Source: Liolophura sinensis
Taxonomy: Eukaryota; Mollusca; Polyplacophora; Chitonida; Chitonidae
Length of the DNA: 64,000 nt
Assembly: GCF_032854445.1 (NCBI RefSeq)
Contig: NC_088305.1
Span: 11,225,606-11,289,605 of the forward strand
Reading direction: 5' to 3'
Both the position numbers and the translations under genes were made by a program. The notes beneath the pieces are model-generated. The model was not told the DNA's origin and did not search any database. It was given only the letters and a program-made list of their open reading frames with translations. Within the stretch, counting starts at the first letter, position 1, and each line of letters opens with the position of its first letter. Positions 1 to 56,122 of the stretch are shown here, in pieces.

Positions 1-34
1 TCTCAGTTATCATGCACAGATGTAGCATACTCAC

Positions 35-155
35 GTCAGATTGTTGATGTTTGTAGGGTTAACATTATCTCCACCCAGCACAGTCTGTATTTCTGTGGCC
101 AGCTTTTCCTGAGCATCTTGGTCACAGGCCAGGAAGTACAGAGCCCAAGTCAGCA
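35..155 (-). CDS. CYP20-like copy 1, exon h (I-helix end to J helix)
   Basis: Acceptor AAAG before 155, donor GTGAGT after 35; 121 nt, entering in phase 1 and leaving in phase 2. It reads LTWALYFLACDQDAQEKL and continues to NNLT. The same 121-nt exon occurs in CYP20-B (24668-24788). Confidence 0.85.
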
Positions 156-430
156 CTTTGAGAGAGAACAGGGTTAAACATGCATTACAGTTTTATACTG
201 CAATTCTACAAAACTTTTCGGCAAGTTAATGCTTACTTTGACGAAAGAAAATTTTAATTACATGGGTGATTTGCACTCAATTTTGCGAAATCAAGTAAAA
301 GGTTAGATCGAATTTAATCCAAAAAGGGTAACCCCCAGCAAGTCTTTATACAGTACACGCAATGTAAGTATCATTAAAACTGGCCCAGTAATAGCTAGAG
401 ACAACAACAGGGAAATAAAAGTGGAACATC

Positions 431-515
431 CCAATGAAGGGAGATAATTCAAATAAGGGGGGATAACTCAAATAAAGGGGGATAACTCAAATAAAGGGGG
501 ATAACTCAAATAAAC
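431..515. repeat. 20-bp minisatellite, GGGGATAACTCAAATAAA type
   Basis: About four tandem units between exons g and h. Copy 2 is at 38273-38356. The GGGGATAACTC core recurs inverted in a CYP20-B intron near 22382-22442. Similar GGGAGATAACTC motifs are common in molluscan DNA as I recall. Confidence 0.8.
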
Positions 516-876
516 ACTGTCTGCATATTCTCACACAATCTCAATCTCCTAAGAGGATAGTACAGAAGTTCTGAAACATCACAGGACACGTGGAATTTGA
601 ATTTTCACACTTTTTATTTCTCTCACAAAACAAGCCAGTAACAAAATTATCCACATGTAACATCTGATTGGCTGAGAGTTCATACAGGTTGACTTGCCCA
701 TAAAACACAGAATAAAATTAATGCTGCCTTACTTCAATAATAATAATTAAGATCTGGGATTTAAATTTCACACTTTTTCCCACCAAACAAGCCAGTAACC
801 CTGTTACACACCTGTAGCATATTAGTGCATACCTACAATGCAGGTAATTTCTGACTGAATGAGAGACTCTACTTAC

Positions 877-1059
877 TGTTTCCTGTGGTGTGGAACCCAC
901 CAATCATATAGCTGAGGCCGTCGGCAAAGACACGATCCAGGTTGATGGGCGAGTCCAGGGACATGAGGTAGTCTATGAACAGAACCTTGTCATCCCTTGC
1001 CCTCTCCAACTGCTTATGCTGAATTACCTCCTCAACAATTCTGTATATTGTAGATTTCC
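877..1059 (-). CDS. CYP20-like copy 1, exon g (H helix to I helix)
   Basis: 183 nt. The acceptor GTTGACAG precedes GGAAATCT and the donor is GTAAGT. In the ancestral frame it reads GKSTIYRIVEEVIQHKQL, then DDKVLFIDYLMSLDS and the I-helix GGFHTTGN. In this copy the upstream frameshift makes it open as GNLQYTELLRR followed by a stop. Its first bases and acceptor are the seed of the adjoining minisatellite. Confidence 0.85.
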
Positions 1060-1930
1060 CTGTCAACAATTGTCTACATTGTATATCCCTGTCAACAAAT
1101 CTGTACATTGTTGATTTCTTTATCAACAATACAGTACCATATAGATTTCCCTGTCAACAATTCAGGACACTGAAGATTTCCCTGTAAACAATTCTGTATA
1201 TTGAAGATTTCTCTGTTAACAATTCAGTACATTTTAGTTCCCTGTCAACAATTCTACACATTGTATATTTCTCTTTTAACAAGTTCTCACATTGTAGATT
1301 TCCCTGTCAACAATTCTACACATTGTATATTTCCCTGTCTACAATTCTGTACATTGAAGATTTCTCTGTCAACAATTCAGTACATTTTAGATCCCTGTCA
1401 ACAATTCTGTACACTGAAGATTTCTCTGTCAACAATTCAGTACATTTTAGATCCCTGTCAACAATTCTGTACACTGAAGATTTCTCTGTCAACAATTCAG
1501 TAAATTTTAGATCCCTGTCAACAATTCTATATTTCCCTGTTAACAAATCTGTACATTGTGAATTTCCCTGTCAACAATTCCGCACATCGTATATTTCCCT
1601 GTCAACAATTCTGTACAGTGAAGATTTTTCTGTCAACAATTCAGTACACTGTAGATCCTAGTCAACAATTCCACACTTTGTATATTTCCCTGTCAACAAA
1701 TCTGTACATTATTGATTTCCCTGTCAACAATTCTATGCATTGTAGATTTCCTTGTCAATAATTCTGTACACTGTAGATTTCCCTGTCAACAATTCTGTGC
1801 ATTGTACATTTCTCTTCTTTACATTGTAAGTTAACCTGTCAAGTATTCTGCACACTCTAAATTTCTCTTTCAAAATACCTCTATACTGTAGATTTCCCTG
1901 TCAGCAACTGTGTTGACCTTATATTTCCTT
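1060..1930. repeat. Exon-g-junction minisatellite (about 29-31 bp units)
   Basis: Units of the type GATTTCCCTGTCAACAATTC (plus strand) run directly from the 3' splice site of exon g into the intron. On the minus strand the units read TTGACAGGGAAATC or TTGACAGAGAAATC, copying the acceptor and first codons of exon g. Translated, the array gives EKSSVYRIVDR, echoing the exon start GKSTIYRIVEE. Parts form a two-unit higher-order repeat (1380-1520). Copy 2 is at 38902-39770. CYP20-B has no such array at its exon g. Confidence 0.9.
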
Positions 1931-2412
1931 GTCTACAATCATGTAGAATAATTATAGCGTAGAATTTTCAATAGAAATAATAAAGACTGAAGAAGTTTTT
2001 ACTGCAGGAAATAAAATACTATACAAGTTTCATTATAGAAAAAAATTTCTTTTTTTCACATTCCCACATGGCAAGGAAAGAAACTGTCAAGAAAAATGGG
2101 TCAGAGGTTCAATAAAAATTCTACAAATACATTAGAAAATATTCATACCTGTATATACTGGAAATAACCTAAACTTCCACCAAAGAGTACATTTTTAGAA
2201 CCATTATATTTCAGTAAATATTAATTTTTTCCAGCAAAATAGCATCCTGCATTCCAAACAAACCTTATAACACCTTTAATAAAGATCAGCAGAACTCTCA
2301 AAATCCGGCAAGACGTGCAACCTGGATAAGAATAGACGTCCATGTTAATCCCAGGTGCAACTTAGTTGTGGGAGAAATTTTAGGGAATTTACCATATCTT
2401 TGAAATGCTTAC

Positions 2413-2490
2413 CTGTCTGAAACCTTTTGTACCTGTCAGTTCCTGGCTCAGGGAAACCACTGTAAGAGACTCCTCTATCACCTCCCAAAC
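2413..2490 (-). CDS. CYP20-like copy 1, exon f, 1-bp deletion
   Basis: Acceptor CTAACAG, donor GTAAGC, 78 nt against 79 in copy 2 (40255-40333) and 82 in CYP20-B. The homologous reading is VWEVxExSLTVGFPEPG...; here the missing base turns the second half into VSLSQELTGTKGFRQ. Phase at the 3' end no longer fits exon g. Confidence 0.8.
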
Positions 2491-2494
2491 CTGT

Positions 2495-3140
2495 TAGGTA
2501 ATACGGTGAAAGGATTGTGAACCAAGGAATGGGATTGTGGACAGAGACATGGGATTGTGGGTCATAAAACAGAAATGTGGACAAAGGAACAGGGGTGTGG
2601 ACAATGAAACAGCACTGTAAACAAAGGAACAGAAATCTGGACAAACGAACAGGAATATGAACAATGCAACAGCAACCGTGAACTAAAGAACAGCAATGTG
2701 AACAAATGAACAACAATGGGGAAAAGGGACAGCATTATATTTAATAAGAAGTATAGGAAATGAGCAGCAGTGTGAACAAAGGATCATGAGGGGAAAAAAC
2801 ATCAATGTAAACCAAGGAAGAGGAATATGAACAATAGAACAGCAACTGTGGGCAATAGAACAGACATGTAAATAATGGGACAGCAATGTGAACAACGTAA
2901 CAGCAAAAGAGAAGAAAGGAACATCAAATGTGACAAAAGTAACAGTAATCTGAACAAATAAATACAGCTGAGAACACCTAGGAATAGGATAGTGCACAAA
3001 TGGAATAGATGCGTAATGTTTATAATGAAAATAAACACAACTGTGAACAAAGGAATACAATTACATAGAAAGGAACAGAAATGTTTCTCCAAAGAACAGA
3101 AACTGAACAACGGAGCACAAATAGGAACAAAGGTAAATTT
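2495..3140. repeat. Degenerate ~26-bp minisatellite, GAACAAAGGAACAGCAATGT type
   Basis: This is a purine-rich (plus) array between exons e and f. On the minus, coding strand it is pyrimidine-rich, ending just upstream of the exon f acceptor. Copy 2 is at about 40335-40980. Long minus-strand open frames over it are by-products of the composition. Confidence 0.8.
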
Positions 3141-5221: not shown

Positions 5222-5415
5222 CGGTCTGTCAAAACTGTTACACCCTAAACACTTATGTTATGTGGTTTGTCAAAACTGTTACACCCTAAACACTTATGTT
5301 ATGTGGTTTGTCAAAACTGTTACACCCTAAACACTTATGTTATGTGGTTTGTCAAAACTGTTACACTCTAAATAATTATGCGGTCTGTCAAAACTGTTAC
5401 ACAAAAAATACTTAC
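5222..5415. repeat. Exon-c-junction minisatellite (41-bp units)
   Basis: About 4.5 tandem units (GGTTTGTCAAAACTGTTACA core) abut the donor of exon c. Each resembles the exon-intron junction itself: ACTTACGTGGTCTGCCAAAG at the junction against AATTATGCGGTCTGTCAAAA in the nearest unit. On the minus strand the units translate to NSFDRPHN, echoing the exon end VFGRPRK. The GT of the donor is lost in the units. Copy 2 is at 43169-43362. Confidence 0.85.
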
Positions 5416-5585
5416 GTGGTCTGCCAAAGACTTGGACCAGATTCTTGAAGATGGTGGGTGATGCTACACTGACGACGTGCTGCTTGCCCCACCAGAATCC
5501 AGCGATTGGTCCATATTGTTTGTGTAACACCATCAGAAACTGGTGCAAACTGCCCGCAGTGGCAACGTCCACCAAATTGCCCTGA
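5416..5585 (-). CDS. CYP20-like copy 1, exon c
   Basis: 170 nt, acceptor TTTGCAG, donor GTAAGT. It reads QGNLVDVATAGSLHQFLMVL, then YGPIAGFWWGKQHVVSVASP to VFGRP. This region aligns with the GSLHEFL...YGP...FW segment characteristic of CYP20A1. It enters in phase 2, so one more exon must lie between a and c. Confidence 0.88.
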
Positions 5586-6295: not shown

Positions 6296-9200
6296 TTTTA
6301 ACCTTCCTGTGGAATACCTTTTCTATTCATGTATACATTTGGTTAAGTGTTTACTTTGAAACTTTCTTTATCTCTGCTTTACACATTTGGTCAGAAGATC
6401 TCTTTTCAAACTTCCTGTGGGATACTTTGTCTATGCATATATACAGTGTTGACTTTTAAACTTTCTGTGGGATACTTTGTCTCTGCATTATTATATACAG
6501 TTGGTCAAGTGTTGACTTTTAAACTTCCTGTGGGATACTTTATCGCTGCATTATTATATACAGTTGGTGAAGTGTTGACTTTTAAACTTATTGAGCAATA
6601 CTTCATCTCTGTATTATTATATACTTTTGGTCAAGTGTTGACTTTTAAACTTCCTGAGGGATACTTTATCTCTGCATTATTATAAACAGTTGGTCAAGTG
6701 TTGACTTTTAAACTTATTGAGGGATGCTTTATCTCTGCATTATTATAAACAGTTGGTGAAGTGTTGACTTTTAAACTTCCTGTGGGATACTTTGTCTATG
6801 CATAATTATATACAGTTGGTGAAGCGTTGATTTTTAAACTTCCTGCGCGATACTTTTCTCTGCATTATTATATACATTTGGCAAAGTGCTGACTTTTAAA
6901 CTTCCTGTGGGATACTTTGTCTATGCATTATTATATACATTTGGCGAAGTGTTGACTTTTAAACTTCCTGTGGGATACTTTATCGCTGCATTATTATATA
7001 CAGTTGTTGAAGTGTTGACTTTTAAACTTATTGAGCAATACTTCATCTCTGTATTATTATATACTTTTGGTCAAGTGTTGACTTTTAAACTTCCTGAGGG
7101 ATACTTTATCTATGCCATATATACATTTGGTTAAGTGTTGACTTTTAAACTCATTGAGGGATACTTTATCTGCATTATTATATACAGTTGGTCAAGTGTT
7201 GACTTTTAAACTTATTGAGGGATGCTTTATCTCTGCATTATTATAAACAGTTGGTCAAGTGTTGACTTTTAAACTTACTGAGGGATGCTTTATCTCTGCA
7301 TTATTATAAACAGTTCGTGAAGTGTTGACTTTTAAACTTCCTGTGGGATACTTTGTCTATGCATAATTATATACAGTTGGTAAAGCGTTGACTTTTAAAC
7401 TTCCTGTGGGATACTTCATCTCTGTATTATTATATACAGTTGGTGAAGTGTTGACTTTTAAACTTATTGAGGGATGCTTTATCTCTGCATTATTATATAC
7501 AGTTGGTGAAGTGTTGACTTTTAAACTTCCTGCGCGATACTTTGTCTCTGCACTATTATATACAGTTGTTGAAGTGTTGACTTTTAAACTTCCTGTGGGA
7601 TACTTTGTCTATGCATAAATTTATGCAGTTGGTGAAGTGTTGACTTTTAAACTTCCTGTGGGATACTTTATCTCTGTATTATTATATACAGTTGGTCAAG
7701 TGTTGACTTTTAAACTTCCTGTGGGATACTTTGTCTATGCATAATTGTATACAGTTGGTGAAGCGTTGACTTTTAAACTTCCTGTGGGATACTTTATCTC
7801 TGTATTATTATATACAGTTGGTCAAGTGTTGACTTTTAAACTTATTGAGGGATGCTTTATCTCTGCATTATTATATACAGTTGGTGAAGTGTTGACTTTT
7901 AAACCTCCTGTGGGATACTTTTTCTATGCATAATTATATACAGTTGGTGAAGCGTTGACTTTTAAACTTCCTGTGGGATACTTTATCTCTGTATTATTAT
8001 ATACAGTTGGCGAAGTGTTGACTTTTAAACTTATTGAGGGATGCTTTATCTCTGCATTATTATATACAGATGAAGTGTTGACTATTAAACTTACTGTGGG
8101 ATACTTTATCTCTGCATTATTATATACATTTGGCGAAGTGTTGACTTTTAAACTTCCTGTGGGATACGCTATCTCTGTATTATTATATGCAGTTGGTCAA
8201 GTGTTGACTTTTAAACTTCCTGTGGGATACTCTATCTCTGTATTACTAGATACAGTTGGTAAAGTGTTGACTTTTAAACTTCCTGTGGGATACTTTGTCT
8301 CTGCATTATTTTATACATTTGGCGAAGTGTTGACTTTTAAACTTCCTGTGGGATACTCTATCTCGGTATTATTATATACAGTTGGTCAAGTGTTGACTTT
8401 TAAACTTCCTGTGGGATACTTTATCTCTGCATTATTATATACATTTGATGAAGTGTTGACTTTTTTAACTTCCTGTGGGATACTTTGTTTATGCATATAC
8501 GCATTTGGTCAAACTTTTCTTTTAAGAATTCCAGGAATTCACCAGTAAAATGGGTACAGGTATGCCAAACAATTCTTACATGTATATTACAGATTCACTT
8601 ACCATTCAGCTCGTTTTTAAACTTCCTGAGGGATACTTTATCTCTGTATTATTATATACAGTTGGTCAAGTGTTGATTTTTATACTTATTGACGGATACT
8701 TTATCTCTGCATTATTATATACAACTGGTCAAGTGTTGACTTTTAAACTTCCTGTGGGATACTTTGTCTATGTATTATTATATACATTTGGCAAAGTGTT
8801 GACTTTTAAACTTCCTGCGCGATTCTTTTTCTCTGCATTATTATATACATTTGGTCAAGTGTTGACTTTTTTAACTTCCTGAGAGTTACTTTGTCTATGC
8901 ATATACGCATTTGGTCAAACTTTTCTTTCAAGAATTCCAGGAATTCACCAGTAAAATGGGTACAGGTATGCCAAACAATTCTTACATGTAATTACAGATT
9001 CACTTACCATTCAGCTCATTTTTAAACTTCCTGAGGGATACTTTGTCTATGCATATACCCATTTGGTCAAACTTTTCTTTTAAGAATTCCAGGATTTCAC
9101 CGGTAAAATGGGTACAGGTATGCCAAACAATTCTTACATGTATATTACAGATTCACTTACCATTCAGCTCATTTTTAAACTTCCTGAGGGATACTTTATC

Positions 9201-23618: not shown

Positions 23619-23792
23619 CAAAATCTGCCCTCCATGACACTCTCAAGGATGTCCTTCAGAAACAGAGGTCACGTCCCCGTGGCAACGACCTGATGTTTGT
23701 TGACATGGTAACGCTGGCGGGGATCTCAGAGGACACACAAGTAGAAGATCTGCTGACATTTATAGTTTGGGGAGTTCACAAGATGGCCTTCA
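23619..23792 (+). CDS. CYP20-B exon g
   Basis: Acceptor CTTTTCAG, donor GTATGT, 174 nt. AKSALHDTLKDVLQKQRSRP, then NDLMFVDMVTLAGISEDTQV, ending in the I helix WGVHKMAF. No minisatellite at its acceptor. Confidence 0.88.
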
Positions 23793-38400: not shown

Positions 38401-41400
38401 AGTACAGAAGTTCTGAAACATCACAGGACACGTGGAATTTGAATTTTCACACTTTTTATTTCTCTCACAAAACAAGCCAGTAACAAAATTATGCACATAT
38501 AACATCTGATTGGCTGAGAGTTCATACAGGTTGACTTGCCCATAAAACACAGAATACAATTAATGCCGCCTTACTTCAATAATAATAATTAAGATCTGGG
38601 ATTTAAATTTCACACTTTTTCCCACCAAACAAGCCAGTAACCCTGTTACACACCTGTAGCATATTAGTGCATACCTACAATGCAGGTAATTTCTGACTGA
38701 ATGAGAGACTGTACTTACTGTTTCCTGTGGTGTGGAACCCACCAATCATATAGCTGAGGCCGTCGGCAAAGACACGATCCAGGTTGATGGGCGAGTCCAG
38801 GGACATGAGGTAGTCTATGAACAGAACCTTGTCATCCCTTGCCCTCTCCAACTGCTTATGCTGAATTACCTCCTCAACAATTCTGTATATTGTAGATTTC
38901 CCTGTCAACAATTGTCTACATTGTATATCCCTGTCAACAAATCTGTACATTGTTGATTTCTTTATCAACAATACAGTACCATATAGATTTCCCTGTCAAC
39001 AATTCAGGACACTGAAGATTTCCCTGTAAACAATTCTGTATATTGAAGATTTCTCTGTCAACAATTCAGTATATTTTAGATCCCTGTCAACAATTCTAAA
39101 CATTGTATATTTCTCTTTTAACAAGTTCTCACATTGTAGATTTCCCTGTCAACAATTCTACACATTGTATATTTCCCTGTCTACAATTCTGTACATTGAA
39201 GATTTCTCTGTCAACAATTCAGTACATTTTAGATCCCTGTCAACAATTCTGTACACTGAAGATTTCTCTGTCAACAATTCAGTACATTTTAGATCCCTGT
39301 CAACAATTCTGTACACTGAAGATTTCTCTGTCAACAATTCAGTAAATTTTAGATCCCTGTCAACAATTCTATATTTCCCTGTTAACAAATCTGTACATTG
39401 TGAATTTCCCTGTCAACAATTCCGCACATTGTATATTTCCCTGTCAAAAATTCTGTACAGTGAAGATTTTTCTGTCAACAATTCAGTACACTGTAGATCC
39501 TAGTCAACAATTCCACACTTTGTATATTTCCCTGTCAACAAATCTGTACATTATTGATTTCCCTGTCAACAATTCTATGCATTGTAGATTTCCTTGTCAA
39601 TAATTCTGTACACTGTAGATTTCCCTGTCAACAATTCTGTGCATTGTACATTTCTCTTCTTTACATTGTAAGTTAACCTGTCAAGTATTCTGCACACTCT
39701 AAATTTCTCTTTCAAAATACCTCTATACTGTAGATTTCCCTGTCAGCAACTGTGTTGACCTTATATTTCCTTGTCTACAATCATGTAGAATAATTATAGC
39801 GTAGAATTTTCAATAGAAATAATAAAGACTGAAGAAGTTTTACTGCAGGAAATAAAATACTATACAAGTTTCATTATAGAAAAAAATTTCTTTTTTCACA
39901 TTCCCACATGGCAAGGAAAGAAACTGTCAAGAAAAATGGGTCAGAGGTTCAATAAAAATTCTACAAATACATTAGAAAATATTCATACCTGTATATACTG
40001 GAAATAACCTAAACTTCCACCAAAGAGTACATTTTTAGGAACCATTATATTTCAGTAAATATTCATTTTTTCCAGCAAAATAGCATCCTGCATTCCAAAC
40101 AAACCTTATAACACCTTTAATAAAGATCAGCAGAACTCTCAAAATCCGGCAAGACGTGCAACCTGGGATAAGAATAGACGTCCATGTTAATCCCAGGTGC
40201 AACTTAGTTGTGGGAGAAATTTTAGGGAATTTACCATATCTTTGAAATGCTTACCTGTCTGAAACCTTTTGTACCTGTCAGTTCCTGGCTCAGGGAAACC
40301 CACTGTAAGAGACACCTCCATCACCTCCCAAACCTGTTAGGTAATACGGTGAAAGGATTGTGAACCAAGGAATGGGATTGTGGACAGAGACATGGGATTG
40401 TTGGTCATAAAACAGAAATGTGGACAAAGGAACAGGGGTGTGGACAATGAAACAGCACTGTAAACAAAGGAACAGAAATCTGGACAAACGAACAGGAATA
40501 TGAACAATGCAACAGCAACCGTGAACTAAAGAACAGCAATGTGAACAAGTGAACAACAATGGGGAAAAGGGACAGCATTATATTTAATAAGAAGTATAGG
40601 AAATGAACAGCAGTGTGAACAAAGAATCATGAGGGGGAAAAACATCAATGTAAACCAAGGAAGAGGAATATGAACAATAGAACAGCAACTGTGGGCAATA
40701 GAACAGACATGTAAACAATGGGACAGCAATGTGAACAACGTAACAGCAAAAGAGAAGAAAGGAACATCAAATGTGACAAAAGTAACAGTAATTTGAACAA
40801 ATAAATACAGCTGTGAACAAAGGAATAGGATAGTGCACAAATGGGAATAGATGCGTAATGTTTATAATGAAAATAAACACAACTGTGAACAAAGGAATAC
40901 AATTACATAGAAAGGAACAGAAATGTTTCTCCAAAGAACAGAAACTGAACAACGGAGCACAAATAGGAACAAAGGTATACTGAGAGGGAAATATACAAAG
41001 AAATCACAGATGTGAAGAACAGATGGTTCAGGCAGCACCAGTAGCTCACCATATTAGGCACACAGTTTAAACTTGCGACTAAATTTTCACAGGCTGCCGC
41101 TACAAAATAAATAGTGATGCTTTGATATACACGTACTAGCCTAATGAACAACCAGCAAGTACATGATCTTTAAATGAAGACAAATAGCTGTTTGCTTAAC
41201 AAACATGTATCGTGTTTTTTTTAATCCCATGCAAACTGTGCAAACCTGACTTCACCATCATCGCAGAAAACAGAACAAAAGTTCAAATTATATCAAGGCA
41301 GTTGTAATTTCGATCAAAAAAAAAAGAAAGAAAAAAAAGATCAACCAAACAGCTTGAAGTGCCGACTTTATCGCTATAGACCTATCTTTATTAACATATG

Positions 41401-50400: not shown

Positions 50401-53400
50401 TATACAGTTGGTCAAGTATTGACTTTTTTTAACTTCCTGAGGGATACTTTGTCTATGCATATACGCATTTGGTCAAACTTTTCTTTTAAGTTTCCAGGAA
50501 TTCACCAGTAAAATGGGTACAGGTATGCCAAACAATTCTTACATGTATATTACAGATTCACTTACCATTCAGCTCATTTTTAAACTTCCTGAGGGATACT
50601 TTATCTCTGTATTATTATATACAGTTGGTGATGCGTTGACTTTTAAACTTCCTGCGCGATACTTTGTCTCTGCATTATTATATACAGTTGGTCAAGTGTT
50701 GACTTTTAAACTTCCTGTGGGATACTTTATCTCTGTATTATTATGTACGGTTGGTCAAGTGTTGACTTTTAAACTTCCTGAGAGATACTTTGTCTCTGCA
50801 TTATTATATACAGTTGTTGAAGTGTTGACTTTTAAACTTCCTATGGGATATCTATGCATAATTATATACAGTTGGTCAAGTATTGACTTTTTTTAACTTC
50901 CTGAGGGATACTTTGTCTATGCATATACGCATTTGGTCAAACTTTTCTTTTAAGAATTCCAGGAATTCACCAGTAAAATTGGTACAGGTATGCCAAACAA
51001 TTCTTACATGTATATTACAGATTCACTTACCATTCAGCTCATATTTAAACTTCTGTATTTGCTCTAAACATTCACCCAAAAAGGTGCATTTTTACTGGCA
51101 AGTAAATGTTGTAAAATATTGCTTTTGGAGCTGAAACTTCCATTCTACCTTTCAAATAAATTCTAAGATAAACAGCACTCTCAGAATAAAAAAATAAGTA
51201 TCTTAATGATGACATTTTAGGTACAAATTAATACAGTAATTTTAATCATCAAACTGTGTTGATTTATTTGTTTATTTATTAGATGTGTGTTTTACGCCGT
51301 ACTCAAGAATATTTCTCTGATAAGAAGGCGGCCAGCATTATGGTGGGAGGAAACCACGCAGAGCCCGGGGAAACCCATGACCATCCGTGGGTTAATGAGA
51401 GACCTTTCTATGTACAGCCGGAGACGAAACCAGCATGAGCTGGACTTGAACTCACTCGACCGCATTGGTGAGAGGCTGCTGGGTCATTAGGCTGTGCTAG
51501 TGCACTAAACAACTGAGCCACAAACTCTCCAGGCTAATGTGTTGATCCTTTGTACAAATGAAGGGAAGGTTCTCTGGGGGTTGAGGGAGGTAAACTACTT
51601 GAAAAGGATGTGAGGTTTGCGCCTGTTTCAGCACAGGACAGTAAAAAAACGTACTCGCCATTCCCTTTAGCTGGATGAAGTCCAGGTACTTGGACTGAAG
51701 TCACATTTGATGGAGTTCTCTACAAAGACAATTATGCAGAGTTTAACTTCTATGCAGTCACGTGTGGTTGGCTTTAACTGAAGAGTTTCCTGCCTCCATT
51801 GTTAACCAATGAAAATAACGCAATATTGTATAATATTTATTTATTTACTTAACTGTTGGTTAACATCATCCACGAAATACATGTGACACAGATGGTTACT
51901 GAAGCATACAGGAGTTATGTATATGGTTACTGAAGCATACATATGTGATGTAGATGGTTACTGAAGCATACAGATGTGATGTAAATGGTTACTGAAGCAT
52001 ACGGATGTGATATAGATGGTTACTGAAGCATACATATGTGATGCAGATGGTTACTGAAGCATACACATGTGATGTACATAGTTACTGAAGCATACAGATG
52101 TGATGTAAATGGTTACTGAAGCATAAACATGTGATGTACATAGTTACTGAAGCATACAGATGTAATGTAGATGGTCACTGAAGCATAAACATGTGATGTA
52201 CATAGTTACTGAAGCATACAGATGTAATGTAGATGGTCACTGAAGCATACAGACGTGATACATATGGTTACTAAAGCAAACAGATCTGATGTAGATGCTT
52301 AATGCAGCATACAGCTGTGATATACACTGTAGTATACACTGTAGTATACATATATGATGTGAATGGTTACTGAAGCATACACGTGATGTAGATGGCTAAT
52401 GAAGCATACATATGTGATGTACATGGTTACTGAAGCATACAGATGTGATGTAAATGGTAACTGAAGCATACAGATGTGATGTACTTGGTTATTGAAACAT
52501 ACAGATGTGATGTAGATGCATACTGAAGTATACACATGTGATGCAGATGGTTACTGAAGCATACATGTGGGATGTAGATGGTTACTGAACCATACAGATG
52601 TGATGTAAATGGTTACTGAAGCATAGATGTGATGTAGATGGTTACTGAAGCATACAGATGTCATGTAGATGGTTAGTGAAGCATACACATGTGATGTACA
52701 TGGTTACTGAAGCATACAGATGTCATGTAGATGGTAATGAAGCCTACATATGTGATGTAGATGGTTACTGAAACATACAGATGTGATGTAGATGGTTATC
52801 TCTGCATTATTATATACAGTTGATGAAATATTGACTTTTAAACTTCCTGTGGGATACTTTGTCTCTGCATTATTATATACAGTTGGTCAAGTGTTGACTT
52901 TTAAACTTCCTGCGCGATTCTTTTTCTCTGCATTATTATATACATTTGGCGAAGTGTTGACTTTTAAACTTCCTGAGAGATACTTTGTCTATGTATTATT
53001 ATATACATTTGGCAAAGTGTTGACTTTTAAACTTCCTGTGGGATACTTTATCTATGCATTATTATACAGTTGGTCAAGTGTTGACTTTTTTAACTTCCTG
53101 AGGGATACTTTGTCTATGCATATATGGATTTGGTCAAACTTTTCTTTCAAGAATTCCAGGAATTCACCAGTAAAATGGGTACAGGTATGCCAAACAATTC
53201 TTAGATGTATATTACAGATTTACTTGCCATTCAGCTCATTTTTAAACTTCCTGAGGGATACTTTGTCTATGCATTATTATATACAGTTGGCGAAGTGTTG
53301 ACTTTTAAACTTCATGAGAGATACTTTGTCTATGTATTATTATATACACTTGGCAAAGTGTTGACTTTTAAACGTCCTGTGGGATACTTTATCTATGCAT

Positions 53401-56122
53401 TATTATACAGTTGGTCAAGTTTTGACTTTTTTAACTTCCCGAGGGATACTTTGTCTATGCATATATGCATTTGGTCAAACTTTTCTTTCAAGAATTCCAG
53501 GAATTCACCAGTAAAATGGGTACAGGTATGCCAAACAATTCTTACATGTATATTACAGAGTCACTTACCATTTAGCTCATTTTTAAACTTCCTGAGGGAT
53601 ACTTTGTCTATGCATTATTATATACAGTTGGTCAAGTGTTGACTTTTAAACTTCCTGTGGGATACTTTATCTCTGTATTATTATGTACGGTTGGTCAAGT
53701 GTTGACTTTTAAACTTCCTGAGAGATACTTTGTCTCTGCATTATTATATACAGTTGTTGAAGTGTTGACTTTTAAACTTCCTATGGGATATCTATGCATA
53801 ATTATATACAGTTGGTCAAGTATTGACTTTTTTTAACTTCCTGAGGGATACTTTGTCTATGCATATACGCATTTGGTCAAACTTTTCTTTTAAGAATTCC
53901 AGGAATTCACCAGTTAAATTGGTACAGGTATGCCAAACAATTCTTACATGTATATTACAGATTCACTTACCATTCAGCTCATATTTAAACTTCTGTATTT
54001 GCCCTAAACATTCACCCAAAAAGGTGCATTTTTACTGGCAAGTAAATGTTGTAAAATATTGCTTTTGGAGCTGAAACTTCCATTCTACCTTTCAAATAAA
54101 TTCTAAGATAAACAGCACTCTCAGAATAAAAAAATAAGTATCTTAATGATGACATTTTAGGTACAAATTAATACAGTAATTTTAATCATCAAACTGTGTT
54201 GATTTATTTGTTTATTTATTAGATGTGTGTTTTACGCCGTACTCAAGAATATTTCTCTGATAAGAAGGCGGCCAGCATTATGGTGGGAGGAAACCACGCA
54301 GAGCCCGGGGAAACCCATGACCATCCGTGGGTTAATGAGAGACCTTTCTATGTACAGCCGGAGACGAAACCAGCATGAGCTGGACTTGAACTCACTCGAC
54401 CGCATTGGTGAGAGGCTGCTGGGTCATTAGGCTGTGCTAGTGCACTAAACAACTGAGCCACAAACTCTCCAGGCTAATGTGTTGATCCTTTGTACAAATG
54501 AAGGGAAGGTTCTCTGGGGGTTGAGGGAGGTAAACTACTTGAAAAGGATGTGAGGTTTGCGCCTGTTTCAGCACAGGACAGTAAAAAAACGTACTCGCCA
54601 TTCCCTTTAGCTGGATGAAGTCCAGGTACTTGGACTGAAGTCACATTTGATGGAGTTCTCTACAAAGACAATTTTGCAGAGTTTAACTTCTATGCAGTCA
54701 CGTGTGGTTGGCTTTAACTGAAGAGTTTCCTGCCTCCATTGTTAACCAATGAAAATAACGCAATATTGTATAATATTTATTTATTTACTTAACTGTTGGT
54801 TAACATCATCCACGAAATACATGTGACACAGATGGTTGCTGAAGCATACAGGAGTTATGTATATGGTTACTGAAGCATACATATGTGATGTAAATGGTCA
54901 CTGAAGCATACAGATGTGATGCAGATGGTTACTGAAGCATACAGATGTGTTGTAGATGGTTATTGAAGCATACAGATGTGATGTAGATGGCTACTGAATC
55001 CTACATATGTGATGTAGATGGTTACTGAAGCATACAGATGTCTTGTAGATGGTTACTGAAGCATACATGTGTCATGTAGATGGTTATGGAAGCATACAGA
55101 TGTGATGTAAATGAAAATGGAAGTATACAGATGTAATACAGATGGTTCCTGAAGCATACACATGTAGATGGTTAATGAAGCATACAGATTTCATGTAGAT
55201 GGTTGATGAAGCATACAGATGAGATGATGACTGATGGTTACTGAATTTTACAGATATGAAACAGATACCCATAGTCACTTCAGCATACATATGGGAATTG
55301 GCATAGATGATTTACACATAATATAAAAAGTAGGCAAAAATGAAAGGATCAGGTACATATGTTGTCTGAGGAGAAAGTACAGAGTGTGATAGTAATGCAA
55401 ATCATAGGCCTATGTTGTGCACAGATATATGTGGTATGGATATTACTGGTACAAGAGCATAGGCCTAGAGGAGGACTGCACATGCAGAACTGCTTGCTGG
55501 CATCAATAAATTAGTTACCGTAATGAACTGTAATTATAACTTAATTATAATGAACTTAATTACACAAACAGATGATATATGATCAGCATAAATTCCACAT
55601 TTGGTACAGATTATCTGAGGAAAATACAAAAATAGAAAAATAAATGTGACAAACAGGAAGTATGCAGTGCAGATTGCTCAAATTTAATGAGGTGCAATAG
55701 GGAGAAAAAAAACGAGTTACATAGGGGTGGGAGAGAAAAAAAAACGAGGTGCATATTGGGGGTGGGAACGGGGAAAAAAACGAGGTACATTGGGGTGGGA
55801 GAGAAAAAAAAACCCTCCAAGTTTATTTCCTGATAATTTGTTTGCACATAGGTATGTGACATCATACACCTTCTATACACATTATATCCACACGTTATGA
55901 TGTTATTAATTATTATATTAAATACGGTACCGGTACGACGAGTGGTAATTAAAGTTTAAATTGAAAATAAAACTTGGGAAAAAGAAGAAAAACATGGACG
56001 TAGGCGTCTTTCAACATTCGTCAACTTCATTGACATCTTACATTAGATCTGCTTTTCACCAAAGAAATCACCACTGCCATTGCGACCACAAAGCAGATGG
56101 CAAGGAGAAGAAGTGGCTCCAT
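32168..56122 (-). CDS. CYP20 family cytochrome P450 (CYP20-A)
   Basis: Minus-strand exons: a 56042-56122, c 43363-43532, d 42480-42625, e 41541-41711, f 40255-40333, g 38719-38901, h 37877-37997, i 34878-34989, j 33954-34018, k 32168-32417 (stop TGA). They encode about 459 residues; one small exon between a (ends phase 0) and c (enters phase 2) is not identified and should carry the proline-rich linker. This fits the ~460-residue CYP20A1. Seen: N-terminal anchor, I-helix GGFHTTGN, K-helix ETLR, FDPERF, heme loop FGLAGKRICPG, C-terminus IKVAKR. Known: CYP20 members are endoplasmic-reticulum heme-thiolate proteins without a settled substrate; vertebrate CYP20A1 has an unusual heme loop and I helix, whereas this copy keeps both in near-canonical form. 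Inferred: catalytically competent. The gene shares its promoter region with PTTG1IP. Introns carry five private minisatellites. Confidence 0.9.
33420..33560. repeat. Short local repeat CACGCTGCAAGGCTCCCTAT
   Basis: Four to five degenerate units of ~35-50 bp, the last two almost identical (GGCTCCCTATTGAAATCTTG), in the intron between exons j and k. Confidence 0.7.
33585..33850 (+). mobile_element. SINE family 1, full length, diverged
   Basis: Worn head (GGCCGAGGTGGTTAGCGTGC), TTCAAGTCCAGCTCATGTTG, and tail GTATAAGCGATGTATTCTTG with AACAAATAAATCAAA. Confidence 0.85.
33954..34018 (-). CDS. CYP20-A exon j
   Basis: Acceptor GTTTACAG, donor GTGAGG, 65 nt. TPIITALGVMLQDEKYWPDP. Confidence 0.9.
34450..34685. 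repeat. Dispersed ~230-bp repeat of unknown family, copy 1
   Basis: Aligns colinearly with 60770-60990: shared TGATTTTGGAGACAAAA, AAAGTATAATTTTATCAG and AAAGGTTGAAGAATTA at matching spacing. No tRNA head or terminal repeat recognised. Confidence 0.7.
34878..34989 (-). CDS. CYP20-A exon i (K helix)
   Basis: Acceptor TTTCCAG, donor GTGAGC, 112 nt. YLRQVQEETLRCSVLAPWAA: ExxR as ETLR. Confidence 0.92.
35331..35700 (+). mobile_element. SINE family 2, full length
   Basis: tRNA-like head GCCCGGATAGCACAGTTGGT with B-box-like AGGATCAATCCTTGATCG. The tail is GAAAAATTGTTGAGTATGAT, then TTAAACCCCAAGCACAGG. Confidence 0.85.
35840..37175. repeat. 29-bp minisatellite, CAGTGTACACAGACTGAGGA type
   Basis: About 45 tandem units in the intron between exons h and i, mixing GTGTACACAG and GTGCACTCAG variants. 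Since 29 is not a multiple of three and units lack minus-strand stops, each minus-strand frame cycles through all three translations and stays open for up to 231 codons. Non-coding in my view. Confidence 0.93.
37176..37860. repeat. ~17-bp minisatellite, TCTCAGTTATCATGCCC type
   Basis: Tandem TCTCAGTTATCATG units from 37176 to 37555 and 37820 to 37860, split by a SINE. It continues up to the donor of exon h. Its last units are also the first 20 bases of the window (copy 1). Confidence 0.88.
37556..37808 (+). mobile_element. SINE family 1, full length, with 11-bp target-site duplication
   Basis: Head GGGACCTCCGTGGCTCAGTC (A box TGGCTCAGTCGGTTAG), B box GAGTTCAAGTCCAG, and tail TTCTTGAGTACGGCGTAAAA ending AATAAATCAA. 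TCTTAGTTATC flanks both sides (37545-37555 and 37809-37819). This is the best-preserved copy here for defining the family. Confidence 0.95.
37877..37997 (-). CDS. CYP20-A exon h
   Basis: 121 nt, donor GTGAGT; same coding sequence as copy 1 exon h (LTWALYFLACDQDAQEKL). Confidence 0.9.
38719..38901 (-). CDS. CYP20-A exon g
   Basis: 183 nt, acceptor TTGACAG, donor GTAAGT, in frame with exon f here. GKSTIYRIVEEVIQHKQL through the I helix GGFHTTGN. Confidence 0.9.
38902..39770. repeat. Exon-g-junction minisatellite, copy 2
   Basis: Same array as 1060-1930, with a few unit-level substitutions. The majority of units retain TTGACAG followed by GGAAATC or AGAAATC on the minus strand. Confidence 0.9.
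40255..40333 (-). CDS. CYP20-A exon f, intact
   Basis: 79 nt, leaving in phase 1. VWEVMEVSLTVGFPEPGTDR then YKRFQT, matching CYP20-B exon f along its length. Confidence 0.88.
40335..40980. repeat. Degenerate ~26-bp minisatellite, copy 2
   Basis: Counterpart of 2495-3140. Confidence 0.8.
41421..41512 (-). mobile_element. SINE tail fragment (family 1), copy 2
   Basis: Counterpart of 3479-3570, predating the duplication. Confidence 0.8.
41541..41711 (-). CDS. CYP20-A exon e
   Basis: 171 nt. VAEEVSLKWDASSNTDDQIP, ending SYDL; differs from copy 1 at KWD (KWA) and FKD (FED). Confidence 0.9.
41845..41990 (-). mobile_element. SINE fragment (family 1), copy 2
   Basis: Counterpart of 3901-4047. Confidence 0.85.
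42480..42625 (-). CDS. CYP20-A exon d
   Basis: 146 nt. PELFKLFEPLITADSIQFAN, ending SSFQK. Confidence 0.9.
43169..43362. repeat. Exon-c-junction minisatellite, copy 2
   Basis: Counterpart of 5222-5415, same unit number. Confidence 0.85.
43363..43532 (-). CDS. CYP20-A exon c
   Basis: 170 nt, acceptor TTTGCAG, donor GTAAGT. QGNLVDVATAGSLHQFLMVL through VFGRP. Confidence 0.92.
44245..51045. repeat. 63-bp tandem array with cassette, copy 2 main block
   Basis: Counterpart of 6296-12590, rearranged: unit order and number differ. Cassettes lie near 46.53, 46.94, 47.09, 47.50, 48.66, 49.01, 49.48, 49.88, 50.22, 50.50 and 50.96 kb. Longest open plus frame is 238 codons (47891-48607). Confidence 0.92.
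51281..51530 (-). mobile_element. SINE family 1, copy 2a
   Basis: Counterpart of 12844-13095, duplicated again at 54221-54470. Confidence 0.88.
51885..52797. repeat. 31-bp minisatellite, copy 2 first block
   Basis: Same array as 13440-15200, cut off at GATGGTTA (52797), where the sequence switches in mid-unit into the 63-bp array. Confidence 0.92.
52798..53990. repeat. 63-bp tandem array, second block of copy 2
   Basis: Begins abruptly inside a 63-bp unit. It repeats the 49.6-51.05 kb block at an offset of 3278, then 2940 after a 338-bp loss, with cassettes near 53.15, 53.50 and 53.90 kb. Confidence 0.92.
54221..54470 (-). mobile_element. SINE family 1, copy 2b
   Basis: Exact offset of 2940 from copy 2a; arose by tandem duplication, not by new insertion. 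Confidence 0.9.
54830..55290. repeat. 31-bp minisatellite, copy 2 second block
   Basis: Shortened continuation of the array; its right part matches the end of the copy 1 array (14600-15200). Confidence 0.9.
55692..55815. repeat. Short array of A-rich units, copy 2
   Basis: Three units of GGTGGGAGAGAAAAAAAAAC type, against four at 15584-15745. Confidence 0.85.
56042..56122 (-). CDS. CYP20-A exon a (start codon, membrane anchor)
   Basis: ATG at 56122-56120, 27 codons, donor GTAAGA. MEPLLLLAICFVVAMAVV plus ISLVKSRSN. The start is chosen because it gives the anchor expected of a microsomal P450 and sits next to the divergent promoter. Confidence 0.7.

What the first reader, a model, noticed from the sequence alone, without database searches (positions are those of the whole stretch)
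1060..1930. Minisatellite made of a gene's own 3' splice site (exon g acceptor)
The array starts exactly at the exon g acceptor, and most units repeat TTGACAG followed by GGAAATC or AGAAATC, i.e. the acceptor plus first codons. The peptide echo (GKSTIYRIV in the exon, EKSSVYRIV in the units) shows the direction of derivation. The intron thus holds about 25 tandem near-copies of a functional AG acceptor. Choosing among them could extend exon g by multiples of ~29-31 nt, shifting or restoring frame. CYP20-B lacks it.
Basis: partly seen in the sequence, partly recalled or inferred. Interest (0 to 1): 0.85.

Follow-up and report, generated by a model that had tools for sequence, protein, structure and literature searches.

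The report
Splice-site minisatellite in chiton CYP20 gene
In a chiton (a mollusc), a short piece spanning the start of one exon of a cytochrome P450 gene has been copied about 24 times in a row into the neighbouring intron; it is a real, probably harmless oddity of a kind described before in amphioxus ("mirages"), and similar cases turned up in other P450 genes of the same genome.

Summary
A 31-nt unit (TTGACAG|GGAAATCTACAATRTACAGAATTG) that straddles the 3' splice site of exon g of a CYP20-like gene (minus strand, first exonic base 1059) is repeated 24 times upstream (1067-1789), with a degenerate tail to about 1935. A genome search found it only at this gene's three tandem copies; the paralogue CYP20-B has the homologous exon and phase but no array, so the exon boundary is the likely source. 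The "splice choice" reading is weak: of 70 alternative AGs, 22 keep frame and none of these leaves exon g open; the AG columns are not specially conserved; unit number is the same in all three copies. The genome is, by inference, the chiton Liolophura sinensis. The structure is what amphioxus workers call a "mirage" (PMC3087553). A survey of 40 P450-bearing stretches found three more at splice sites: the donor of exon b of the same gene, an 88-unit acceptor array and a 2.6-kb donor array. Their number is near what random seeding of minisatellites would give. No RNA evidence was available.

The parts
877..1059 (-). Exon g of CYP20-A copy A1 (phase 1 to phase 1, 183 nt); first 28 nt (1032-1059) belong to the array
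   Evidence: splice sites read from the sequence: TTGACAG|GG and AAACA|GTAAGT
1060..1061 (-). AG of the exon-proximal (presumably used) acceptor
   Evidence: the only AG of 71 that gives an open in-frame exon g
1036..1066 (-). Unit u0, straddling the acceptor; equals the array consensus at 30 of 31
1067..1789 (-). 24 upstream units u1-u24 (17 of 31 nt, 6 of 29 nt, one of 22 nt), with a 60-nt (29+31) higher-order repeat in u10-u15
1790..1935 (-). Degenerate distal units at the intron side of the array
   Evidence: read by eye; boundary approximate
2413..2490 (-). Exon f of A1 (ends phase 1, ..CAG ACA G|GTAAGC); one G fewer than A0 and A2 at 2459 (frameshift or assembly error)
38719..38901 (-). 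Exon g of copy A2; 181 nt compared, identical to A1
   Evidence: end by analogy with A1
38874..39777 (-). The same array at copy A2: 6 substitutions, no indel against A1 over 880 bp
   Evidence: distal end by analogy with A1
5223..5428 (-). Second mirage of the same gene: 41-nt units (about 5) straddling the donor of exon b (last exonic base 5416)
   Evidence: boundary 34-mer matches the adjoining unit with score 20 against a maximum of 14 in 500 shuffles
23619..23792 (+). CYP20-B (B2) exon g, homologous boundary, ACTTTTCAG|CAAAATCT, no array

Best explanation
It is a 'mirage': a minisatellite seeded by a tandem duplication of about 31 nt across the exon g 3' splice site (probably between the two TTGA words that flank the unit) and expanded by slippage or unequal exchange, later partly as a 60-nt higher-order unit. 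It sits inside the intron and is removed with it. The exon-proximal acceptor stays the one that makes functional mRNA. Because the array pushed whatever lay upstream of the old acceptor 0.7-0.9 kb away, the branch point used now probably lies in the array itself: 22 of 24 units begin with a YTNAY word (TTGAC in 18), whose A lies about one unit plus 3 nt ahead of the next unit's AG. Shown: origin from the boundary, uniqueness in the genome search, same unit number in three copies, the frame result. Inferred: the seeding step, branch point use, harmlessness.
For: Consensus of the units equals the exon unit at 30 of 31. CYP20-B has the homologous codons and phase without array; A/B first 11 residues score BLOSUM 14, reached by 164 of 68,612 stop-free 11-residue windows in six frames, A's own copies and units included. 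Genome-wide the array matches at the three A copies only. Central units are homogenised (lag-2 identity 0.97-1.00 in u10-u15), edges less so (0.68-0.71 at u2-u5; 0.71-0.84 from u17 to u24), like the globin mirages of PMC3087553 (abstract and passages). Three further splice-boundary arrays in the same genome. PMC3087553 and PMC3902484 (one passage) say amphioxus mirages do not disturb regular splicing.
Against: No RNA data: use of the exon-proximal acceptor is not shown. That acceptor is weak on a rough recalled matrix (score -2.0, rank 30 of 86 AGs in the last 1,300 nt), though the CYP20-B acceptor also scores -2.0 (rank 11 of 46). Unlike the amphioxus cases, no length change is seen among the three copies. 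The founder duplication is no longer visible, so the TTGA step is a guess.
Confidence: 0.8

Rival explanations
1. The array is a bank of alternative acceptors: choosing among them extends exon g and alters or switches off the protein (for example as poison sites leading to decay of the mRNA).
For: 21 of 24 units keep AG in register; 29 of the 85 other AGs in the last 1,300 nt outrank the exon-proximal one on a rough matrix, one array AG at -91 with +2.2. Switching off needs no open frame.
Against: 0 of 22 frame-preserving alternatives are open and the other 48 shift the frame, so no alternative protein; AG columns (1.00 and 0.88) are no more conserved than the AAAT columns (all 1.00) of the exon-derived part.
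Confidence: 0.08
2. The array is an older intron satellite that grew into exon g and replaced its first codons, so the exon copied the array and not the reverse.
For: The exon is the last unit of the array and departs from the unit consensus at only one position.
Against: CYP20-B keeps homologous codons and phase at the same place without an array; no related satellite matched elsewhere (that search skips very common words).
Confidence: 0.08
3. CYP20-A is decaying, and the arrays at its splice sites are a symptom or a cause of loss of function. (This can hold together with the best explanation.)
For: A1 exon f has a 1-nt deletion. Between A1 and A2 I count 10 substitutions over 8 exon blocks read (about 1,140 nt), 9 of them changing the amino acid: no sign of purifying selection.
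Against: A0 and A2 keep exon f open; exon blocks g, h, b and j show no change; A1's deletion is in a G run and A1 has similar one-base gaps nearby (2326, 2199), so it may be an assembly error.
Confidence: 0.25
4. Assembly artefact.
For: HiFi coverage is 14X and heterozygosity 1.24% (PMC11068029, passages); the three B-A pairs are close enough that part of the triplication could be uncollapsed haplotypes.
Against: The array (0.9 kb) is far shorter than the mean read (8,347 bp), the window has no N, and the array stands at three places of the assembly with the same unit number.
Confidence: 0.03

Closest known systems
Amphioxus 'mirages' (Adh3, globins BflGb6 and BflGb9; also reported for TnC and PGBD5)
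   Same: Minisatellite-like tandem copies of an exon-intron boundary, acceptor or donor side, many but not all units with AG/GT signals, homogenised inside with boundaries left out (PMC3087553, abstract and passages; PMC3902484, passage)
   Different: Mollusc instead of cephalochordate; 24 units here and about 88 in L016 against 6 and 3 in the two BflGb6 haplotypes; no length variation among the three copies; splicing not tested
Intron gain by tandem duplication (Rogers 1989; Zhuo 2007; Gao and Lynch 2009)
   Same: Tandem duplication or arrays carrying splice signals (citations seen in PMC3087553; the works themselves not read)
   Different: No new intron here: the position is shared by CYP20-A and CYP20-B, the array only lengthens an old intron
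NAGNAG and other tandem acceptors (recalled, no call)
   Same: Neighbouring competing AGs
   Different: Spacing about 30 nt, many copies, no productive alternative frame

Membership tests
Mirage (exon-boundary minisatellite) | Tandem repeat unit spans an exon-intron boundary of its own gene | tested here: met
Mirage (exon-boundary minisatellite) | Many but not all units keep the splice signal | tested here: met
   21 of 24 AG in register
Mirage (exon-boundary minisatellite) | Concerted evolution inside, boundaries excluded | tested here: met
   lag-2 identity 0.97-1.00 in u10-u15, 0.68-0.71 at u2-u5, 0.71-0.84 in u17-u24
Mirage (exon-boundary minisatellite) | Length instability between haplotypes | tested here: inconclusive
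   no change of unit number among three copies; no population data
Mirage (exon-boundary minisatellite) | Regular splicing preserved | not testable with these tools
   no RNA data
Regulated array of alternative 3' splice sites | At least one alternative acceptor gives a productive reading frame | tested here: not met
   0 of 70 other AGs
CYP20 (cytochrome P450) | P450 domain | tested here: met
   Pfam PF00067 on A2's heme exon (62.2 bits) and exon b (26.3 bits); exon g alone gives no family hit
CYP20 (cytochrome P450) | Best similarity to CYP20A1 along the gene | tested here: inconclusive

The most novel reading that the evidence does not exclude
Mirages are not a cephalochordate curiosity but a regular by-product of minisatellite birth in repeat-rich animal genomes: in this chiton they hit donors and acceptors, reach about 88 units, and supply the branch point and acceptor for their own intron, so that the spliceosome must pick the last of dozens of equal or better acceptors, a natural test of exon definition against first-AG scanning.
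Probability: 0.4. Interest if true: 0.65.

Novelty: new member of a known kind. Interest (0 to 1): 0.48.

Why it matters
It carries a phenomenon known from amphioxus to a mollusc, shows by a small survey that several genes of one genome have it, and offers, in the 88-unit case above all, a natural experiment on how the spliceosome chooses one 3' splice site among many near-copies. It also bears on intron gain by tandem duplication, for which such arrays have been proposed as raw material (PMC3087553).

Tried and rejected
A functional acceptor bank was tested by frame, by a rough 3' splice-site matrix from recall (it ranks the presumed true acceptors poorly, so I give it little weight) and by column conservation. 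A dispersed satellite was sought and not found.

An excess of mirages over random seeding was tested: 40 stretches, 120 exon blocks, 74 arrays, 311,681 bp; expected 1.28 arrays whose unit spans an exon end by 6 nt or more on each side (1.60 at 3 nt, 1.08 at 8 nt). Seen: four at splice sites, P of 4 or more 0.041; without the case I was given three, P 0.138, plus one array over a stop codon (L038). The observed cases were settled by eye; L016 was flagged but missed by the exon blocks, because tblastn blocks often stop short of the true exon ends, so the expectation is rough too. Dropped or changed before that count: the window past 37,842 (second copy of the repeat); L001 and L021; false blocks inside the L011 array; the L018 block was cut to its donor by eye; 16 window exons were entered by hand. 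L018 had looked like a case and was rejected (array over 100 nt past the donor).

Not done: an RNA fold of the array, a CYP tree, a B0 check. The original Adh3 paper (PMC117041) is not held and was not read.

Papers: 10 of 10 searches used. Judged by titles and starts of abstracts, 'mirages' in this sense stood in two held papers only, and the searches on minisatellites or tandem repeats at splice sites (two searches listed only 20 of 56 and 12 of 27) showed no mollusc case; a gastropod haemocyanin intron paper (PMC7931591) was searched by word and holds neither 'minisatellite' nor 'mirage', and a chiton genome paper holds no 'tandem repeat' or 'minisatellite' (PMC12005716). Most subscription journals are not in that library, so I do not claim that no such case is in print.

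Full report
Where it is. The window lies at C11:11225606-11289605 of a 609,464,459-base genome in 632 contigs. Eight mollusc haemocyanin beta-sandwich domains in a row on C8, the 632 scaffolds and 609,495,693 bases of a published assembly (31,234 more than held here), and contig lengths equal to published ones (C9 37,343,639; C8 58,388,612; C1 96,433,062; C5 19,479,325; C6 differs slightly) point to the chiton assembly published as Liolophura japonica and later corrected to L. sinensis (PMC11068029, passages; PMC12441733, whole text). This naming is my inference.

The genes. Two P450 genes of CYP20 type face each other: B on the plus strand (about 18.2-27.0 kb) and A on the minus strand. tblastn with a recalled human CYP20A1 finds several of their exons, not f and g; Pfam p450 hits A's exon b and heme exon. 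The B-A pair occurs three times in tandem on C11; exon g of A and of B matched 3 places each and no other; the heme exon gives the same six genes plus six weaker hits to other P450s. A1 and A2 are 98.8% identical over 1-3135. The assembly has 1.24% heterozygosity, so part of the triplication may be haplotypes; I could not tell.

The array. Exon f ends in phase 1 (CAG ACA G|GTAAGC) and exon g starts at 1059 (TTGACAG|GG AAA TCT ...), giving ..FQTGKSTIYRIVEEVIQHKQ. TRF gives 31 bp x 25.9 at 1032-1812. Cut at TTGA there are 24 upstream units and the exon unit; 23 of 24 are 77-90% identical to the exon unit and the 22-nt u16 68%; 1,500 random 31-mers average 48% with a maximum of 66%. Past 1789 four or five degenerate units follow to about 1935 (by eye). 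The consensus of the 17 full-length units equals the exon unit at 30 of 31 positions; the exception is G in the units where the exon has A (ATG against ATA). Units of 31 and 29 nt alternate in u10-u15 as a 60-nt repeat with lag-2 identities 0.97-1.00, while u2-u5 have 0.68-0.71 and u17-u24 0.71-0.84.

Direction. CYP20-B's exon g begins at the same phase with homologous codons, ACTTTTCAG|CA AAA TCT GCC CTC (A KSALHDTLKDVLQKQ), and has no array there in B2 or in the 351 bases read of B1. The first 11 residues of A and B score BLOSUM 14, reached by 164 of 68,612 window 11-mers, A's own copies included. So the exon boundary is most simply older than the array. The search with the 879-base array returned the three A copies only.

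Stability. A0 and A1 do not differ in the array; A1 and A2 differ by 6 substitutions and no indel in 880 bp, against 18 substitutions and 108 indel columns in 1,099 bp upstream of exon f, 11 and 0 in 698 bp of intron g-h, and 1 and 4 in 470 bp of the rest of intron f-g. Unit number has not changed, unlike the 6 and 3 units of two BflGb6 haplotypes in amphioxus.

Splice choice. Of the 71 AGs from 1990 to 1059, 23 keep the frame of exon g, and of these only the exon-proximal one is free of stops (read 150 nt into exon g); A2 gives the same counts. The cause is simple: a 31-nt unit turns through the three frames, and one of them meets the TGA in TTGACAG. So use of another AG would give a truncated or shifted product. 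AG columns are at 1.00 and 0.88, the AAAT columns all at 1.00: no sign of selection on the acceptors. On a rough recalled matrix the exon-proximal acceptor scores -2.0 (rank 30 of 86), the B acceptor also -2.0 (rank 11 of 46), so the matrix does not decide. 22 of 24 units begin with a YTNAY word, its A one unit plus about 3 nt ahead of the next AG (32 nt for u1), a usual branch point distance (recalled); I infer that the array may supply the branch point.

Survey. I examined 39 further P450-bearing stretches (19 of the 20 cut, L021 being used as query only, and the 20 cut) and the first 37,842 bases of the window. Four arrays cross a splice site: this one; exon b of the same gene, donor side, 41 bp..TTTGGCAGACCAC|GTAAGTATT (score 20 against a shuffle maximum of 14); L016, acceptor side, 52 bp x 87.8..AACTATTCCAG|GTCTGACCTGCCC against units AACTGTCCCCAG|GTCTGAACTGCCC; L011, donor side, 57 bp over 2.6 kb, CTCCATGCTG|GTAAGTTAC, with a partial second copy of the exon inside the array. 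Boundary 28-mers have 18, 1, 10 and 40 copies at 75% identity or more (g, b, L016, L011), and 0 in 60 shuffles each. The exons of L016 and L011 are P450 by Pfam (64.1 and 68.5 bits). In L016, 64 AG|GTCT sites besides the real one stand in the last 4,600 nt, 19 keep frame and 0 are open; 88 of 105 other AGs rank above the real one by the rough matrix. L038 has about three 31-bp units over the stop codon. Random seeding predicts 1.28 such arrays among 74: the excess is small (P 0.041 for four, 0.138 for three) and includes the case I was given.

Comparison. [quoted passage not shown] By structure this is a mirage. New are the phylum and the unit numbers, as far as ten searches of an open library show.

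State of the gene. A1's exon f lacks one G that A0 and A2 have; A1 and A2 differ by 10 substitutions in 8 exon blocks read, 9 of them changing the residue, so constraint on A may be relaxed. This leaves open whether a failing gene merely tolerates the arrays.

Noticed in passing
L016:2919-7485 (C10:7876418-7880984): 52-bp x 88 array straddling the acceptor of a P450 exon (first exonic base 7473); 88 of 105 other AGs in the last 4,600 nt rank above the real one on a rough matrix.
   Followed up: partly
L011:5481-8125 (minus): 57-bp array straddling the donor of exon 1 of another P450 gene (last exonic base 8076); reading on past the donor stays open for 49 codons; the array is interrupted by a second copy of about the last 240 nt of the exon.
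   Followed up: partly
window:5223-5428: Second mirage in the same CYP20-A gene, at the donor of exon b; GTAAGT is changed in the adjoining unit (ATAATT).
   Followed up: yes
L038:3203-3303: About three 31-bp units over the end of a P450 coding sequence, each carrying the letters TCATAA of its stop.
   Followed up: partly
window:2459: One-base deletion in exon f of A1 against A0 and A2 (G run), frameshift or assembly error; similar one-base gaps at 2326 and 2199.
   Followed up: partly
window:26779-27030: In-frame TGA in the heme exon of B2; B0 and B1 have none.
   Followed up: no
G000 C11:11174260-11264507: Three tandem convergent CYP20-B/CYP20-A pairs about 37.5 kb apart, A0 and A1 almost identical: recent duplication or uncollapsed haplotypes.
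   Followed up: no
window:13453-15156 and 51890-52798, 54830-55259: A 31-bp satellite unrelated to the exon g array that differs in size between the two copies (54.9 against 29.3 and 13.9 units), while the exon g array does not.
   Followed up: no
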